In this document: in pieces, positions 18,252 to 30,535 of the stretch | Numbering within the stretch: the stretch's first letter is position 1 | Layout of the letters: each line of letters starts with the position of its first letter | Source: Tetrahymena elliotti 4EA | Taxonomy: Eukaryota; Ciliophora; Oligohymenophorea; Hymenostomatida; Tetrahymenidae | Reading direction: 5' to 3' | NCBI GenBank assembly: GCA_000231825.2 | Contig: JH720335.1 | Coordinates: forward strand, 1-64,000 | Length of the DNA stretch: 64,000 nucleotides | The notes under the pieces: generated by a model | Told to the model about the DNA's origin: nothing | Databases searched by the model: none | Seen by the model: the letters and a program-made list of their open reading frames with translations, nothing else | Translations under genes and position numbers: made by a program

Positions 18252-20604
18252 TTAAGTTTTATTTATTGATTATTGTTTTTTTATATTAAAAATAATTATC
18301 AAGTATACTTATGGGCCTGCATAAATAAGACATTTTAAATTAACCAGTGTTCCTTAATTTAGACAAAATAAACACTTCATAACCACTCCCAATTGATTTA
18401 AAATAAATAATTAAATTGAATGTTTATAAAATTTTTCCACAATTTGCTTTAAAAAAATTATCAATTTTAGATTGAAATGAAATTGTGAGTAAAGAATATT
18501 ATTTAAAAAATCCTCTATACTTACATGCGAAGAATTCATTATCTAATAAAGGTAATAATATAATATTTTTCTATTTTATTTAAACTCATAACAGTGTCCA
18601 AAACATGAAATATAAATAAAATACATATCAAATACAATCAATAGATTTATAAAAATGGTGTAATTTTATTGTTTATAAGTCATAGTAAATGAGGATTAGT
18701 GGTATTTAATTGTATAAAAAGAATACATTTTTTGTAAAAAATATGAGTCATTTCATTAACAGATTTAATAATTAATTATGCAACAAATTATTGATTTGAT
18801 GTAAAGAAATAAAAATTAAATGTAAATTAAGTTATTAGTGTTTATTTACTTTCTGCGTGAATTAGATTAGTATAAAAAATATATATTATTTTAACAATAA
18901 TTCCTACGAAAAAGCTAAAATAATATTTTAAATTTTATCTGACATATGTTTTTCTAATTTATAATAGAATTTTTCAAATATTTTCAGTTTATATAAAGTA
19001 ATATTGATTCATGTATAAATAAATTTAAACTTCTCAGTAATTAAAAAATAACAAAAGATTTCAATTAAGTGTTAATTTAATATTTAAAAATCAGAGTATT
19101 TATCTTAAATTATTCAGTGATTGTTTAATAATTTTATTAAAATTAAAACCAACCAATTTTTTGTATTTTTATTTATTTAAAGAGTAATAAATGATCATTT
19201 GGCTATCAAATTATATATATTTTTGCCTTTTGAGTATTGTCTACCATTAAGAATATTTCTAATAATTCGATATATTTATCTATTAAGATAGAAATTATAC
19301 AAATCTTTTAATGCCTAACAATTTAGTTTTAGATTTCTAAGTAAGAATAAGAAAACTAAATGTATCTTTTAGAAAATTATACATTTTTTTTTAAAGATCT
19401 TAAAAAAGTAAATAGCTTTAAATTTAAAAAATAATATGATTTTTCTATTCAGGTGTATTACATTAACTATTTTACTTATTTAAGATATAAATGAATTTAT
19501 GAATCAGATTTAATGTAAAATAATTTTGTTTTTTTTTTTATTAAATAGGACCTCATCAGTTTAAGGTTTTTTCAAGACATCAAGAAAACTTTAGAACACC
19601 TTATTTACATTAATAATATTACAAAATTCTGCAAATCATTTTTTTGAGAAGAATTATCTGAATTGAAAATTAATAAATTGTAGAAACTGTAAACTAATTC
19701 TATTAAAAAACTTTTCTAAATAGTCTAAAGCCCATTTAAATTTAGTTATGAAACATATTTTTTATATTTCTTTTATTATAGAAAGAGGAAGATTACTAAT
19801 TATGATATAAAAAATAGAAGCTAATTCTAGGAAAAATTCCCTCAATTAAATTACCATAAAAATCATCCCTTTATTTAGAATTAGAATTTATATTAAAAAT
19901 TAGATATTTTATTTTCTAAAATGAGCCTATTGCTACTATTTGATAATACCTATGTATTTGAATTGATATTTGCTTATAAACACTACATTTTATCTATCTT
20001 ATTTTTTAAGTTATAATTAAGTTTAAAGTAAAAAAATAATTTTTTTTCTCCAAATATTAATCATTATATTATTTTATTTTTGGAAGCAAAAGTCTATTTT
20101 TTTAATTTTAAATAAAAAGATGTTTTACTGAAGTCGCTTTTTAAAATTTTTTATAATTAGAATCATTTTGTTTTTCAAGTTAATTATAGGTAAGTTAAAT
20201 ACTAATAAATTAAAATCCAGTAAATTTTGTATAGTCAAAATATTTTTAAGGAATATTTATGAAGATATTTCTAAAAAATTGATTTACTTTATTTGAAAAA
20301 TATTTGTAAAACTTTCCATTACTTCTTTGAACATATTTTTATTTGAATTTATTTTTTCTTAAATAAATAATTAGAATATTTGTTTTAATAATTTGTTATT
20401 TTTTACAATATTCAATTAATTCTTCGATTTAAACTGTTTGAGCAAATTAATAAATTAGAATATTTAAAATACTTCATAATATTCTAAAAAAATTATTTAT
20501 TTATTTAGTAGATTAGATTTTCTTCAAAAAGTAAAACCTAATCTGAGTTATAACAATTTATTAACAAATAAATTTCAAAAATTAAATTAATCCTTTTTTT
20601 AACA
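18252..20604. other. Gene-poor AT-rich spacer
   Basis: About 2.3 kb without a frame that resembles a protein. Divergent genes flank it on both sides, so promoters should lie near both ends. No repeats of note. Confidence 0.5.
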
Positions 20605-22827
20605 ATGAGTTAAAGCTATTCATATAAAAATAACTAAGGTATTGATTTCAACACTTTGAAAGAATACGAAATTGAACAAAATAACTCTATCATAATCTTA
20701 CCTGATAATTAAAAACTCTTATGCAATTTGTATGATGTTGATTTTGATGATAGCTGGGAAATCTTAGAAGAAAATTTTTAAGATAAAAATTATGAAAGCC
20801 TATTGTTATGTTAATTCATGAAGTTTTTAAGTTCTAACTAAGATTAAAAGGTTAAAATAATTACAACATTAGGTGAAAAAGGAAGTGGAAAATCTTTTAT
20901 CTTAAACATTTTAGTAAAAGAATATGAAGAAAATAATTATTATTCTATGATTTTTCCTTTTGAATAATTGTCTAAAACTCAAATAAGAGGAATAAATTTT
21001 TATTGTGTAAATAAAATCTGCTAAAAAAATGAGTTAACAATCTTTTTTGATTGTGATATGTTTAGTTTATTAAGTAATAATCATGCTAAAAGTTTAGAAA
21101 AATTAATTTGTTTAATTACTAGAATGTCAACATGTGTTTTTTATGTTCATGAAGATGCTAGAAATTTAGAGAGTTTTGAATAAATTATTAGGATAATTAA
21201 TACTGACAAGATAAAATAAAAAAAATAATAATTTGATAATATTATTGAAGTAGTAAATAAGTGGGATGGAGTTTTAAGCTAAAGCTTATAGGATAACTAG
21301 AAATACAGCAAAATAATAAAAAAAGTATTTAGACTGAGAAAGCTTAATTTTTTATCAATGAATGATCATGAAAAAGAAAATTTTGCATGCATAATAGCAA
21401 GAGATTAATGCTATTCAGAGTTTATTGACTAAATGAATCTAATTACACAACTTTGCTAGACTTCATAGTATGAATCCTCTTTTTCTAATTGGAAAGCTTT
21501 TGAATAAGAATAAACTTGTTATTGTTTAAACAAAATAATTTTATGTTGTTTTTAGTTTATTAATGAAAATATTGAAGAGAATGTAACACCCACCATTAAT
21601 TGTTACCCCGAATTAACCATAAGGTTAATTCGGGGTAACAATTAATGGTGGGTGTTACATTCTCTTATTGATATTTCATTAGGACTTTTCATTGATATAA
21701 TTAATTAATAGCTATCTTTCAAGTAAGATATGATTCAGAAAAAGACTAATTATTTCAAGTAAATATATCTAGAAAATGAAAGTAAAATAAAATAGGTACT
21801 AGAATATATGAAAGACACTCATATATCTTAAACAATTTTATGTTTTTCATCTATTTCCTACATAATCAGCAATATTTAAAATATTATAATTTGGTTTGAA
21901 TAACAATCATGCAAATAGATCCAAAATTTTTAAAATAATCTGAATTAATTAATGGCTCAACATTACTAAAGTGTACCAGAGCAATTTTATTAAAGCATAA
22001 TCTAGAAGTGCATGAATCTTGAATCTATAATACCAGAAGATTTTAGATGCACATAATAAATTCAGTAATTAAAAAGCTATCTGCAAAAAGATGCCTCTTT
22101 AATAATAAAATTATCATCTAAATCAACTTTTTAAAACATTTCCAGGATTTACAGTTAGTTTATCATGGAATAATTTATTGATATCTTTGTATGGCCTCAA
22201 TAGATGAAACAAAAAAAACAACTTATAAATTAAATGTTTTAATTTATAAAAAATGGTCAATTTTCGAAAAATAAAATTCCTTAAAATATTTAACTACTAA
22301 AGAAGATACTGTAAAATTAGTTTTAGTCTGCTCAATATTTTTAGATTGATAATAATACTGAAGAATAAAATGCAATAACATTTGCTATATTTTTCAATTT
22401 GATTAATCCTTCTATTACTTGTACAAATAATTCTTTGTCTAACTTTGAAATTCATTAATAAGTTCTTTTAAGTTGCTTTTATATTTTTAGGGTTGATGAT
22501 AGAATTCGGTCTTTAGATTTATAGTAAATTTATTATAAACCTCCAATTACAATTAGAGATTAAGATTTTGAATTCTGTGAATAATTAATTTTTATAAACA
22601 AAGAACTAAATTCATATTGCTAGAGCTAATTTTTCAGTATTAACTCTAATCAAAAGTAGCTATATACTATGCTCTTCTTTTTAAAAAATAGAGATGAAGA
22701 TTTATTCTTGACTTTCATTTACTACGCCTACTTTTATGAATATCTTTACTCACTAGAATTTGCACAAAAAATGAGCAATGAGGATTTTATCAAAACATTA
22801 ATAATAATCTAATAAAGTCTAATTTGA
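20605..22827 (+). CDS. Large P-loop GTPase-like protein (GBP/atlastin-like), carries a palindromic insert
   Basis: One exon, 740 residues. Residues 90-97 form a Walker A loop (GEKGSGKS). It is followed by a switch-like RGINFYC segment and a Walker B/G3-like strand ending in FFDCDMF, where classical GBPs and atlastins have DTEG. The order resembles dynamin-like GBP/atlastin GTPases, which remodel membranes, but no clear NKxD or RD motif is seen, so nucleotide specificity is uncertain. A paralogue lies at 28475-30535 and aligns end to end (for example ICLITRMSTCVFYVHEDAR against ICLITRISTCVLYVHGNSR). Unlike the paralogue, this copy lacks the hydrophobic hairpin near residue 450-490. A 90-bp inverted repeat interrupts the gene at 21576-21665 without breaking the frame and adds 32 residues after about residue 322. 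Function unknown. Confidence 0.75.
21570..21671. repeat. Target-site duplication flanking the palindrome
   Basis: The hexamer tattga occurs at 21570-21575 and again at 21666-21671, immediately outside the palindromic element. The paralogous gene shows a single uninterrupted copy of the corresponding codons. Confidence 0.8.
21576..21665. mobile_element. Palindromic fold-back (MITE-like) insertion
   Basis: Arms of 43 nt (21576-21618 and 21623-21665) are perfectly complementary around a 4-nt loop (ataa, 21619-21622). The ends read agagaatgtaacaccc and its complement. The 6-bp direct repeat tattga borders it on both sides (21570-21575 and 21666-21671), as expected of a target-site duplication. 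Its GC content is about 40 percent, well above the surroundings. It has no coding capacity of its own, so it must have been mobilised in trans. Removing the element plus one repeat copy (96 bp) restores the residues ENIDISLG, matching ENIDVSLG in the paralogue. It carries no TGA in the host frame. Confidence 0.85.
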
Positions 22828-26096: not shown

Positions 26097-28474
26097 ATAC
26101 ATAATCTATTAAATAAAATCTACAAAAAAAATACTTAGCATTACAATAAATACTAATAAGATCATCAAGAATTTGTTTCAACATAAGAAAAGAGAATTTC
26201 TGTATTAAAAATTAACAAACAAGCAAAAATTTTTTGAACGAATATAAATATCCAACTTATTAATTTTCTTAATTTCTTCTCTTAATTATATAGCTCTTAT
26301 TTTTTCAAAAAATCATTTAAAACCATAAATGCTTACTTACTATCTTGATATAGAAAAAACTTCTTTTCAAATATCGATAAAATGTTTCTTTTAAATTTTT
26401 TGTATGAAAAAAAGAAATCGTTTTATTGAATAATAATTTTCAAAAAGTTTTATTTTGATTAAATTAAAAATGGAATTTGGGTTTAAACCAAAAGAAAGTT
26501 TTTTAAAACTTTTAGCTCTTATTCTAAGCTTATTTTCCTCTTCTTGTTCTAAAAAATAAGAAATATTAGTTTTTGTTATTATAATCAAAAATTCGTTTCC
26601 TGAGTTTTTAAAATTAAATTCGTTAAGCAAAAGTTTATTTATGGATACGAAAAAATTTAAGTTCAAAGGTCATACTTTTGCAATTTTTTGAATCTTTTAC
26701 ACTTACTGATATTTGTATTTTAAAGTCTTATTTTGAATAATTATTTTACAGTGGCAATATCTAATTTAGAACATATTAGTAGTTGAAAAAATACTCCTAA
26801 TTGATTACCACCTAACTGACTAGTTATTTTTCACAAATTTTATACTAAAATAGTGAAAAAATGACAAATTGTGAACAGAAGTGTATTATTTGGCTGAGCA
26901 ATAGACAAATTATTTTTTATAAAATTAATATGTAAAAATAAATAACACGTATTTTGAAATTACTTCTTTACAAAAAGCATATTAACTTAATCTCCAACTG
27001 TTAATTATATTAAATTTTGTAATTGAAAAAATTTATTTTTATATCCTTTCAACTCTGTAAATTTAATAAAATGTTAGAATAAAAAGAAGGGGATGAGTGA
27101 GTGGGAAACTATATTTCAAAATAAAATTATAAAACTTTGTTGATAATTTATTAAAATGAGAATTTTAGATATTTTACAAATCAGTCATACCCTATTTTAA
27201 TTTAAAAAATTTTTATCTAAAATTATTATGAATACAAAAAATAAAGTGTAAATGAAATGCATTAGGTACTAAGATATTTAGAAGATTGAAAAATACAAAA
27301 TAGTTACTAAAAATTAAAAAAAAATAATATTTTTGAGAAGAAAAAAAAAATAATCTAAATCATAAATATATCATTGAATTTCAAAATAAACAAATGCACG
27401 CAATAAAATATTAAAAGCATTAAATTAAATATTGCACAATCAATATTTAATTATTCAGAAAATTAGATATCTTTTTAGATTGATATCAGTCAACAAATAA
27501 TAAGAGATACAAATAAAATCTTTATCTTTTGATATTTATTTTTTTAAAAGTATGGTGGAAGTTTAAAGTTTTAAATTTTAAATAATATTTATAAATTACT
27601 TATCATCATAAATCAATCCATACTTTAAATTGCAGAGAATCAGTTCAAAATTTTATCAAGTTCATTAAAATTATTGCTTAAAAATTTTAGTACTAAATTT
27701 ATCAATAATGTATATCAAATGAAACAATAAAATAGCAAAAAGTTAGAATTTAAATTATTCTAAAATTATTAAAATCTTAATATAAAAGAATTTTTTAGAG
27801 AATACAAACAAACTCTTTGAGATAGAAAATCTATTCAAGCATATCAAGTAGTAAATATGAAAAAGCTTTTTTTTTTTGTAAATTTTATATGTGTAAATAT
27901 TAAAATTATTCTTTAACAGATAAATTTTTTCTATATATTTTTAGTGTATGCTAAAGGCTCTTTATCCTTTTGATTTTTAGTAGAGATCAAATAGAAAAGA
28001 AAAAAAAAGTATTTTAGAATAATATTATTTAAAATAGATTCTTAAGAAAAATATTCTAAAAAATTTAAATTAATAAGGAAATAGGATTTTATGAGCAATT
28101 TTAAAATGTACACATTTTTAATAAAAAACAATTTTTTCTGACAGACTATAAATTTTTTGAAGTACAAAATATACTTATTGTGAGAAAAAAAAAATACTTA
28201 CATTAGCTTTAAAAAATTATGATTGTTATGAATAAATATGTTGCTTTTTAAAGAAAACAGTTAATTTTAGATAGGATATATCAATCTTTTATTAGAATTA
28301 TTAATATAACTGGATTTTTTAAAACCATGAATAAAAATTAAAGAAGTAGAATAAAAATTTAACTATTTATTCTAATAAGTTTGGTATTTGCAAATATAAA
28401 TACAGCATCAATTTAGCAAATCTTGTAATTAATATAAATAAAAAAATTAAAATAAAACAAAAAATACCACTTAA
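26097..28474. other. Gene-poor AT-rich spacer
   Basis: About 2.4 kb without a recognisable gene. A minus-strand frame at about 26366-26666 codes for a Phe/Lys/Asn-rich peptide with no start ATG and no known motif; it may be a relic. The rest is A/T runs. Confidence 0.45.
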
Positions 28475-30535
28475 ATGGGTTAACAAGAATCTAAAGAGTA
28501 AGTTCTGATTATCAAGCCAAGTAGCTCTTAACTCTAAAAAAACTTATGCTACATTGATACAGATGAAAGTGGAGAGATCATAGAACTGAAATTTTAAGAT
28601 TAAAGCTATGAAAAAATGTTAGAATCAGAGTTTATCAAATACTTAGACTAAAACTCAGACAAAAAAATTAAAATAATAACAACTTTTGGAGAATTCGGTT
28701 AAGGAAAATCATTTATTTAAAACTTTTTCATTTAAAGTTATCAAAAAAAAAAAGAATTTTCTTTAATCTTTCCATTTAAATCAAACACAAGAAGTATTAC
28801 AAAAGGAATCAATTTTTATTGTTTAGAAAATGAAGAATAAAAAAATGAAATAACTGTTTTTTTTGATTGTGAAGGATTTGATTACTCAAATAAAAGCTCT
28901 CATATGAAAAACTTATAAAAATTAATCTGTTTAATTACAAGAATATCTACCTGTGTTTTGTATGTCCACGGAAATTCTAGAATACCTAAATCTTTTGATG
29001 ATATTATAAATTTAATCAAAGCAAAAGATGAATCGGAAAGTTAGATGATTCACAATTTTATAGAAGTAGTAAATAATTGGAATGGTGATGAATTTGAAAG
29101 TTTTTAATAAGATAGTCATTTTAATAAAATAATAACCAAGTTGTTTAAATTAAAATAACTTTCTTTTTCTAATCGTAATAAAGAAGAAGTAGAATAAAAG
29201 ATTTGTAAAATAAAATAAGATAAAAATTATGAAGAATTTATTAATGAAATTAACCAAATAGCTAAATTCCTCAAAAATTCTAAATACAAGACTCCTTATA
29301 AAAATTGCAAAGCTTTTGAATAAGATTAAACTTGCTACAGTTTCAAAGAAATGCTTCTCTGCAGCTTTTAATCTATACAAGAAAATATTGATGTGTCCTT
29401 AGGACATTTTATAAGCATAATTAATGAATAACTTGTCTAAAAGAAACGTTTTACTTTAGAATTAAATTAAAAAATTGAGGAGATGTTTGAATAATATAAA
29501 ATTTCTTTGTAAAATATATTAATAAATTTCTCAGATACCCATATTTCCTTAGCCCTTATAATATTTTCTTTTAGATAATTTGTCTTAAATAGATAAGATT
29601 TAATAAGATAGAATTTGTAATAATTTATGCAAAAATGGAAATAAGAATTTCAAGCAAAATTAAATTAAATTATTACAATAAATTCAATAAATCTATCTGA
29701 TTAAAGCAAAGAACTAATAATTCAAAAATATAGCAATTTTCAATCTTTTAAACCTAAATAAATTAAAATGATTGAAGTTTTTTAAGAATATGAAAATAAA
29801 AAATGTTCTATTGATTTTTTCAAATTATTCTTCTTCATTATTTTAGTGTAGTTTTCTGGTTTCTTCATTTCAACTATTGGCTTACTTGGTCTAAAATTTA
29901 TTAAATTATTTAATGATAAAAAACTTAAAATGCTGTAGAATAATCTAATTGATCATATAATTTCAAAAATAAGATATTTTACGAAAGGTAATAGTCAATA
30001 AAACATTTAACATTTAAGAGAAATACTATTTAATTATTCAAGTCAATAATAATTAGCTTAACAAAGTGATTTTGCTGTTTTTCTGACATTTTTTAATCTA
30101 TCTCATACTTCAGTTTTAAATTTTATAAATTATTAGAAAGGGTTTGAAGTAGATAATTAAGTTCTTTAATCTTGTATTCAAATATTCAAAGAAGATAATA
30201 ACATACAATCTTTAAATCTCAAATTAATTTACAAATTCCCTTCAATTAAAATCAAAGATTCAGATTTCGAATTTTATGAAGATTAGTAGGTTATTTTGTT
30301 TATAAGTTAGTAACTTAACGATATTTGCTCAAAAAATTTAAGAAACATTAATTAGCATGAGTAAGAGCTTTACAAAATGCTTTTCTTCTTGAAAAACAGA
30401 AATATCGATTTATTACAAACTTTTATTTGTTACACTTACTTTGATGACTTCATAAATTCTCAAGATTTTGTAGAAAAAATGAATGACTAAAGAGAAATTT
30501 CAGAATTGATTAAATTTTAAAAATCATTAATTTGA
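28475..30535 (+). CDS. Large P-loop GTPase-like membrane protein, paralogue of the gene at 20605
   Basis: One exon, 686 residues. The N terminus begins MGQQESKEQ, which offers a possible N-myristoylation glycine. Walker A is GEFGQGKS at residues 72-79. A switch segment KGINFYC and the strand TVFFDCEGFD follow; DCEG is closer to the DTEG motif of GBP/atlastin GTPases than the version in the neighbour. A hydrophobic hairpin (LFFFIILVQFSGFF and STIGLLGLKFI, about residues 450-485) could anchor the protein in a membrane, as in atlastin/Sey1. The remaining C-terminal half is helical and Gln-rich. Full-length similarity to the gene 5.6 kb upstream on the same strand shows tandem duplication with intervening material. 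The exact family is not certain. Confidence 0.78.

What the first reader, a model, noticed from the sequence alone, without database searches (positions are those of the whole stretch)
21570..21671. 90-bp palindromic element with 6-bp target duplication, exonised in frame
Two perfect 43-nt arms and a 4-nt loop, flanked by tattga on both sides, interrupt a P-loop gene. Deleting element plus one tattga gives ENIDISLG, which fits ENIDVSLG in the paralogue 7 kb downstream. The 96-bp gain is a multiple of three and has no TGA, so the host frame survives only because TAA is glutamine here. This is the footprint of a non-autonomous fold-back transposon captured as coding sequence. It could also be an eliminated sequence that escaped removal from the macronucleus.
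Basis: partly seen in the sequence, partly recalled or inferred. Interest (0 to 1): 0.88.

Follow-up and report, generated by a model that had tools for sequence, protein, structure and literature searches.

The report
Palindromic mobile element inside protein genes
A 90-base mirror-image piece of mobile DNA has spread through a Tetrahymena genome, and in some genes it seems to add 32 amino acids without breaking the reading frame, because this organism reads a usual stop codon as glutamine.

Summary
It is one copy of a real mobile family. The window's own genome (90 Mb, Tetrahymena-type) holds at least 21 two-armed copies; 20 have a directly adjoining 6-bp target repeat, one a 7-bp repeat offset by a base. 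Nearly all base differences between copies occur in both arms together. A one-armed copy led to two further end modules: Y (7 palindromes, all with 6-bp repeats) and Z (at least 10 head-to-head pairs, one read). Asymmetric elements join them (X-Y once, read; Z-Y three times, one read). Fold-back copying of half an element is the favoured origin of the palindromes (about 0.4). Four of 20 readable X copies lie in long frames that look coding on both sides, using all three phases; two are backed by homologues. In one of these, 17 of 18 homologues lack exactly the 32 added residues (the other has a longer gap). No autonomous partner was found; expression and the germline locus are untested. It behaves like Rickettsia palindromic elements, but in a eukaryote. 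New variant of a known kind (MITE / fold-back element).

The parts
21576..21665 (.). X-type palindromic element, 90 bp, AGAGAATG...CATTCTCT
21576..21618 (+). left arm, 43 nt
   Evidence: no mismatch with the right arm
21619..21622 (.). loop ATAA (TTAT on the other strand)
21623..21665 (-). right arm, 43 nt
21570..21575 (.). target duplication TATTGA, left
21666..21671 (.). target duplication TATTGA, right
20380..22827 (+). host frame, 815 codons with table 6; P-loop-like GEKGSGKS (motif recalled); first likely Met at 20605; no Pfam match
28388..30535 (+). paralogue, 39% identical, empty site ENIDVSLG at 29381-29404

Best explanation
The segment is a complete copy of a miniature, non-coding DNA transposon (MITE) of fold-back type. 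An integrase or transposase supplied from elsewhere inserted it at a staggered 6-bp cut in an exon, duplicating tattga. Element (90 bp) plus duplication (6 bp) is 32 codons, and this copy holds no TGA in any frame, so under the ciliate code the gene stays open and gains 32 residues. Shown: copies, target repeats, homologues with empty sites, open frames. Inferred: the enzyme, its germline source, translation of the insert. Inferred for the origin of the palindrome (about 0.4; lowered from 0.5 when the loop evidence was rechecked): related asymmetric elements have two unlike halves, and each half was turned into a palindrome when a strand was copied, switched onto itself just past the arm and was copied back. 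Repeated formation of this kind, or hairpin-templated correction, keeps the two arms of a copy alike.
For: Copies: 49 of the 50 end matches fall in 28 loci, 21 two-armed and 7 one-armed (one of these is the X-Y element); the other match, at 3 mismatches, is at the level of the reversed control (3 matches). Target repeats: 21 of 21 two-armed X copies, 20 of them 6 bp and adjoining, one 7 bp and offset by a base; 7 of 7 Y palindromes; the one Z palindrome read; the X-Y element. Chance is 0.26% per site. Arms: 4 mismatches over 20 copies against a permutation mean of 52 and minimum of 22; six columns vary on both arms together. Asymmetric elements: X-Y at C2:1808642-1808774; Z-Y at C24 (read), C4 and C7:686588 (matches only). 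Empty sites: window gene against its paralogue and a T. thermophila homologue; L041 gene against 18 homologues, of which 17 lack exactly the 32 residues and one has a longer gap there.
Against: No autonomous element was found, but only three families were sought: rve PF00665 (no match here; rang in 6 of 14 controls), DNA_pol_B_2 PF03175 (no match; rang in no control) and, as a check of the method, piggyBac-type PF13843, which has 12 matches over its cut-off in this genome. Copies are not commoner in long open frames than random sites (6 of 20 against 24% at 140 codons; 9 of 20 against 54% at 80). The C24 Z-Y element has no target repeat. With boundaries shifted into ATATAT the repeats of 4 of the 7 Y palindromes can be drawn as 8-9 bp. 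Loops: in the one proven X-Y element the bases after the arm are TCAT, not the TTAT of the palindromes; the one-armed copies with TTAT may be halves of palindromes, so the X loop is weak evidence for fold-back; the Y inner part differs between palindromes and asymmetric elements. X-Z and Y-Z likenesses score below the best of 500 shuffles. One of 20 copies (L056) has a TGA. No RNA evidence.
Confidence: 0.85

Rival explanations
1. The palindrome is a somatic scar: the germline holds a longer element with these ends, and its interior is removed during macronuclear development, leaving two terminal stubs joined.
For: One of six contig ends looked at carries GGGGTT repeats, so the assembly is taken as somatic. 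In T. thermophila some transposon ends are preferentially retained in the macronucleus (PMC5182062, section 15). One-armed copies diverge soon after the arm.
Against: Loops are the same 4 nt, in one or the other direction, in 18 of 20 X copies, whereas most Tetrahymena excision is imprecise (recalled). Stub joining would need separate germline elements with X/X, Y/Y, Z/Z, X/Y and Z/Y ends.
Confidence: 0.17
2. The elements are terminal fragments or snap-back by-products of a Maverick/Polinton/Tlr-type element, moved by its retroviral-type integrase.
For: 6-bp repeats and, for X only, AGAG...CTCT ends: vertebrate Mavericks are reported with (AG)3//(CT)3 end motifs and 6-bp duplications (PMC8097293, passages); rve integrases typically give 6-bp duplications (PMC12220804, passages). 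Maverick/Tlr elements are part of the T. thermophila germline (PMC5182062, section 15).
Against: Y and Z start with ATATAT; no rve or PolB match in this genome (the second without a positive control); no long element with these ends was seen.
Confidence: 0.2
3. The insert is an intron or is skipped in the mRNA, so no protein carries it.
For: GTAA occurs in the arm (GT at 21583). Another copy (L006) may lie in an intron of a cyclin-like gene, judged by eye.
Against: The one GT...AG pair weighed by eye, 21583-21682, is 100 nt and would shift the frame; no full scan of splice sites was made. The frame reads through here and in L041, where both flanks are conserved coding sequence.
Confidence: 0.1
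4. Assembly or cloning artefact.
For: Perfect palindromes are hard to assemble (recalled), and some copies run into unreadable sequence.
Against: Twenty-one two-armed copies at different places, each with a target repeat, falling into sequence subfamilies.
Confidence: 0.01

Closest known systems
Rickettsia palindromic elements (RPE)
   Same: Short palindromic repeats inserted in frame in protein-coding genes, adding a peptide (PMC10969869, passages).
   Different: Bacterial, about 150 bp by that review. Here: a eukaryote, 90 bp, clear 6-bp target repeats, three frames used, openness that needs TAA as a residue, and related asymmetric elements. Sequences were not compared.
Near-palindromic MITEs such as human Made1
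   Same: 80 bp, two 37-bp inverted repeats round 6 bp (PMC1784062, abstract and passages).
   Different: Made1 is related to Hsmar1 (same passages; TA target recalled). Here the target repeat is 6 bp, no parent is known and some copies lie in coding frames.
MITEs and palindromic IESs of the ciliate Blepharisma
   Same: Ciliate MITEs, some families palindromic (PMC9942856, passages).
   Different: Those are found in IESs, removed from the soma, and the described family has TAA/TTA repeats. These are in the somatic genome, with 6-bp repeats of varied sequence.
Maverick/Polinton/Tlr elements
   Same: 6-bp target repeats; AG-rich start of the X end.
   Different: Large elements with integrase and protein-primed polymerase; these are 90-140 bp and non-coding, and Y and Z begin ATATAT.

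Membership tests
MITE (non-autonomous DNA transposon) | short, inverted ends, several copies at different places | tested here: met
   21 two-armed copies; 20 readable, 89-91 bp; one with an unreadable centre
MITE (non-autonomous DNA transposon) | target-site duplication of constant length | tested here: met
   20 of 21 X exactly 6 bp and adjoining, one 7 bp offset by a base; 7 of 7 Y; the one Z read. Not met by the C24 asymmetric copy
MITE (non-autonomous DNA transposon) | ends shared with an autonomous element | tested here: inconclusive
   none seen in the somatic genome or, for the X end, in viral contigs; germline genome not held
Maverick/Polinton/Tlr | 6-bp target duplication | tested here: met
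Maverick/Polinton/Tlr | (AG)n end motif | tested here: inconclusive
   X begins AGAGAAT; Y and Z begin ATATAT
Maverick/Polinton/Tlr | encodes rve integrase and protein-primed PolB | tested here: not met
   element too short to encode them; no genome match (the PolB search rang in no control)
Rickettsia palindromic elements | in-frame palindromic inserts in different protein genes | tested here: met
   two gene families with homologues; two more frames by codon use
Rickettsia palindromic elements | sequence homology to RPE families | not tested
   no RPE sequence was compared
piggyBac-type element | TTAA target | tested here: not met
   21 X target repeats of varied sequence
IES (eliminated germline sequence) | present in germline, absent or shortened in soma | not testable with these tools
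   no germline assembly held

The most novel reading that the evidence does not exclude
A eukaryotic counterpart of the protein-coding palindromes of Rickettsia: a fold-back transposon that is open in all frames only where TAA is a sense codon, so it can enter exons in any phase and add 32 residues. Its palindromes are made afresh by fold-back copying of either half of an asymmetric relative, which would make the family a natural record of hairpin-templated transposon birth.
Probability: 0.35. Interest if true: 0.8.

Novelty: new variant of a known kind. Interest (0 to 1): 0.62.

Why it matters
It would be a eukaryotic case in which a changed genetic code decides whether a transposon insertion breaks a gene or merely lengthens its protein. 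It also offers three palindrome families with asymmetric relatives, from which the birth of perfect palindromic MITEs can be tested directly. Long hairpins inside mRNAs might also feed RNA interference (inference; the 161-nt stretch folds at -89.6 kcal/mol).

Tried and rejected
Autonomous partner: rve and DNA_pol_B_2 searches of the own genome gave nothing; piggyBac DDE_Tnp_1_7, run as a check of the method, has 12 matches; other transposase families were not sought. X end pattern in viral contigs: no match. The one-armed copy C2:1808 was first suspected to be the end of a long autonomous element; it is a 133-bp X-Y element in what looks, by eye, like a host gene. Other one-armed copies: 6-bp repeats downstream were looked for; no convincing second end. 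Other proteins with the insert peptide: a region search of P0001 gave none. Enrichment in genes: none, if anything a deficit. Coding score by codon use: weak; trained on the window gene and its paralogue; the window copy itself scores between the 75th and 90th percentile of random sites, L040 between the 90th and 95th, L041 and L054 above the 95th; L048 also scores well, on a frame of only 23 codons on one side (an earlier version is). Pfam: none for the window gene and its paralogue; two sub-cutoff matches for the L041 protein, none for L040. Species: a ciliate telomerase RNA scores 154.8 bits and the closest proteins are from Tetrahymena; genome size and the window's G+C are near T. elliotti or T. 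borealis (PMC6564038, table in section 6); not settled. Literature: ten searches of open-licence papers; by titles and abstract starts none describes such an element in Tetrahymena. Seven papers were opened: passages of PMC9942856, PMC8097293, PMC10969869, PMC12220804 and PMC1784062, and passages plus one section each of PMC5182062 and PMC6564038.

Full report
Observation. The host frame 20380-22827 is open for 815 codons with table 6. The element holds no TGA. Under the standard code each of its three frames has at least one stop; under table 6 none has. As the element is its own reverse complement outside the loop, the other strand is much the same. Of 90-mers of the window, 18% have no TGA on one strand, so openness alone is not remarkable; together with a net gain divisible by three it explains how copies can survive in exons. 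One of the 20 readable X copies, L056, does contain a TGA.

Genome. The window lies in a 90-Mb, 134-contig genome. One of six contig ends looked at shows GGGGTT repeats; a ciliate telomerase RNA is present, and the closest proteins are from Tetrahymena. I take it as the somatic genome of a Tetrahymena species; which one was not settled.

Copies. The 19-nt end pattern with up to 3 mismatches gives 50 matches against 3 for the reversed control. They make 21 two-armed loci, 7 one-armed loci and one match at the level of chance. All 21 two-armed copies have a target repeat: 20 of 6 bp, directly adjoining, and one (L050) of 7 bp, offset by a base. Of the two-armed copies 20 can be read through; one has an unreadable centre. 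The target sequences differ, with a leaning to A and T.

Arms change together. Across the 20 readable copies columns 8, 21, 23, 35, 38 and 41 vary, with both arms carrying the same base in all but one cell. The four mismatches between arms, in columns 2, 18, 38 and 39, are in three copies. Four mismatches stand against a mean of 52 and a minimum of 22 in 20,000 shuffles of right arms among copies. Shuffling ignores relatedness, so the safer statement is six symmetric columns against four lone asymmetric changes. Palindromes that mutate one base at a time would not look like this; either copies descend from freshly made palindromes, or hairpin-templated correction acts.

Two further modules. 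The one-armed copy at C2:1808642-1808774 is a 133-bp element: GCTATT, X half, a different half (Y), GCTATT. Y has 29 end matches: 7 head-to-head pairs, palindromes of 138-140 bp, and 15 single ends. With the boundary at ATATATAG...CTATATAT all 7 have 6-bp repeats: GATCTA, ACTATT, CATTCA, TGTGTT, TACAGG, TAAGAC, ATAATT; in 4 of the 7 a longer repeat of 8-9 bp can be drawn by shifting the boundary. Three of these were read in full, four only at the flanks. One Y single, at C24, continues into a third module, Z. Searching with it (40 of 89 candidates scored) shows at least 10 head-to-head Z pairs and two further matches along the Z-Y query, C4 (94%) and C7:686588 (83%), which were not read. The one Z palindrome read, at C9, has arms of about 68 nt with CCCAAA on both sides. 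The C24 element shows no target repeat. By eye Z resembles Y at its outer end and X at its inner end, and the X-Y element aligns from base 34 of the Z-Y query on, that is, into Z; but local alignments of the modules score below the best of 500 shuffles, so I treat this as a lead.

How the palindromes may arise. The Z arm in the Z-Y element runs on as TCTCGACAAG; the Z palindrome reads TCTCGA-CAA-TCGAGA, so its loop is the next three bases of the unfolded element, as a strand that copies the arm, passes a few bases and then copies itself back would leave. For X the case is weaker: the palindrome loop is TTAT (18 of 20, either direction), the proven X-Y element has TCAT after the arm, and the one-armed copies that have TTAT may themselves be halves of palindromes. 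The Y palindromes differ from the asymmetric elements in their inner part, so they do not test it. That unlike halves of one kind of element each have a palindrome family fits fold-back copying better than the joining of two equal ends. This step is inferred, at about 0.4.

Coding insertions. With the element left out, 6 of 20 sites lie in frames open for 140 codons or more on both sides, against 24% of random sites; at 80 codons it is 9 of 20 against 54%: no preference for genes. Four copies lie in frames open for at least 50 codons on both sides with good codon scores on both: the window copy, L040, L041 and L054 (the training set includes the window gene, and the window copy's own weaker side is only between the 75th and 90th percentile of random sites). 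They use three phases: ENVTPT... in the window, RMQHPP... in L040 and L041, REYNTHH... in L054. The L041 case is strongest: of 18 homologues, 17 from T. thermophila, T. malaccensis and T. utriculariae and one from Ichthyophthirius, none has the insert; 17 lack exactly the 32 residues and one (P0020) has a longer gap there. The window gene has an empty-site paralogue 7 kb away and a T. thermophila homologue without the insert. The other 18 of the 20 readable copies were not tested against homologues.

What it does. As far as shown it is a selfish mobile sequence; in exons it would lengthen proteins. As RNA the 161-nt stretch folds into one long hairpin, -89.6 kcal/mol, 17.8 standard deviations below shuffles, so small-RNA production is a fair guess, untested.

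Known relatives. Behaviour is closest to Rickettsia palindromic elements (PMC10969869, passages); structure is closest to near-palindromic MITEs such as Made1 (PMC1784062, passages). The repeat length and the X end recall Mavericks (PMC8097293, passages; PMC12220804, passages), but the genes that define that group are absent from the element and two of them were not found in the genome, and Y and Z have other ends, so I do not file it there.

Limits. No germline sequence, no RNA, no sister-strain loci; three transposase or polymerase families sought; copy numbers are lower bounds, as the search tool states.

Noticed in passing
L054 (C47:699134-700426): X copy in a glutamine- and asparagine-rich frame open for about 200 codons on both sides, the whole stretch held.
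   Followed up: partly
L006 (C22:754916-758005): X copy just upstream of a cyclin-box-like region, perhaps inside an intron; judged by eye.
   Followed up: no
L003 (C72:316162-319261): X copy in the N-terminal part of a protein-kinase-like frame (HSDIKPDN and DFG read by eye; Pfam gave no match).
   Followed up: partly
C5:1116795-1116935: A 141-bp stretch that matches the Y palindrome on both strands at 72%: an older or further relative.
   Followed up: no
L002 (C18:1020439-1023530): X copy in a frame open for 77 and 90 codons on the two sides that looks coding by eye; low score on at least one side.
   Followed up: no
L050 (C37:104192-105481): X copy with extra bases between its right end and the target repeat.
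   Followed up: no
C5, C39, C118, C72, C82 and C38 of the own genome: Twelve matches to the piggyBac-type transposase family PF13843, some in long frames.
   Followed up: no
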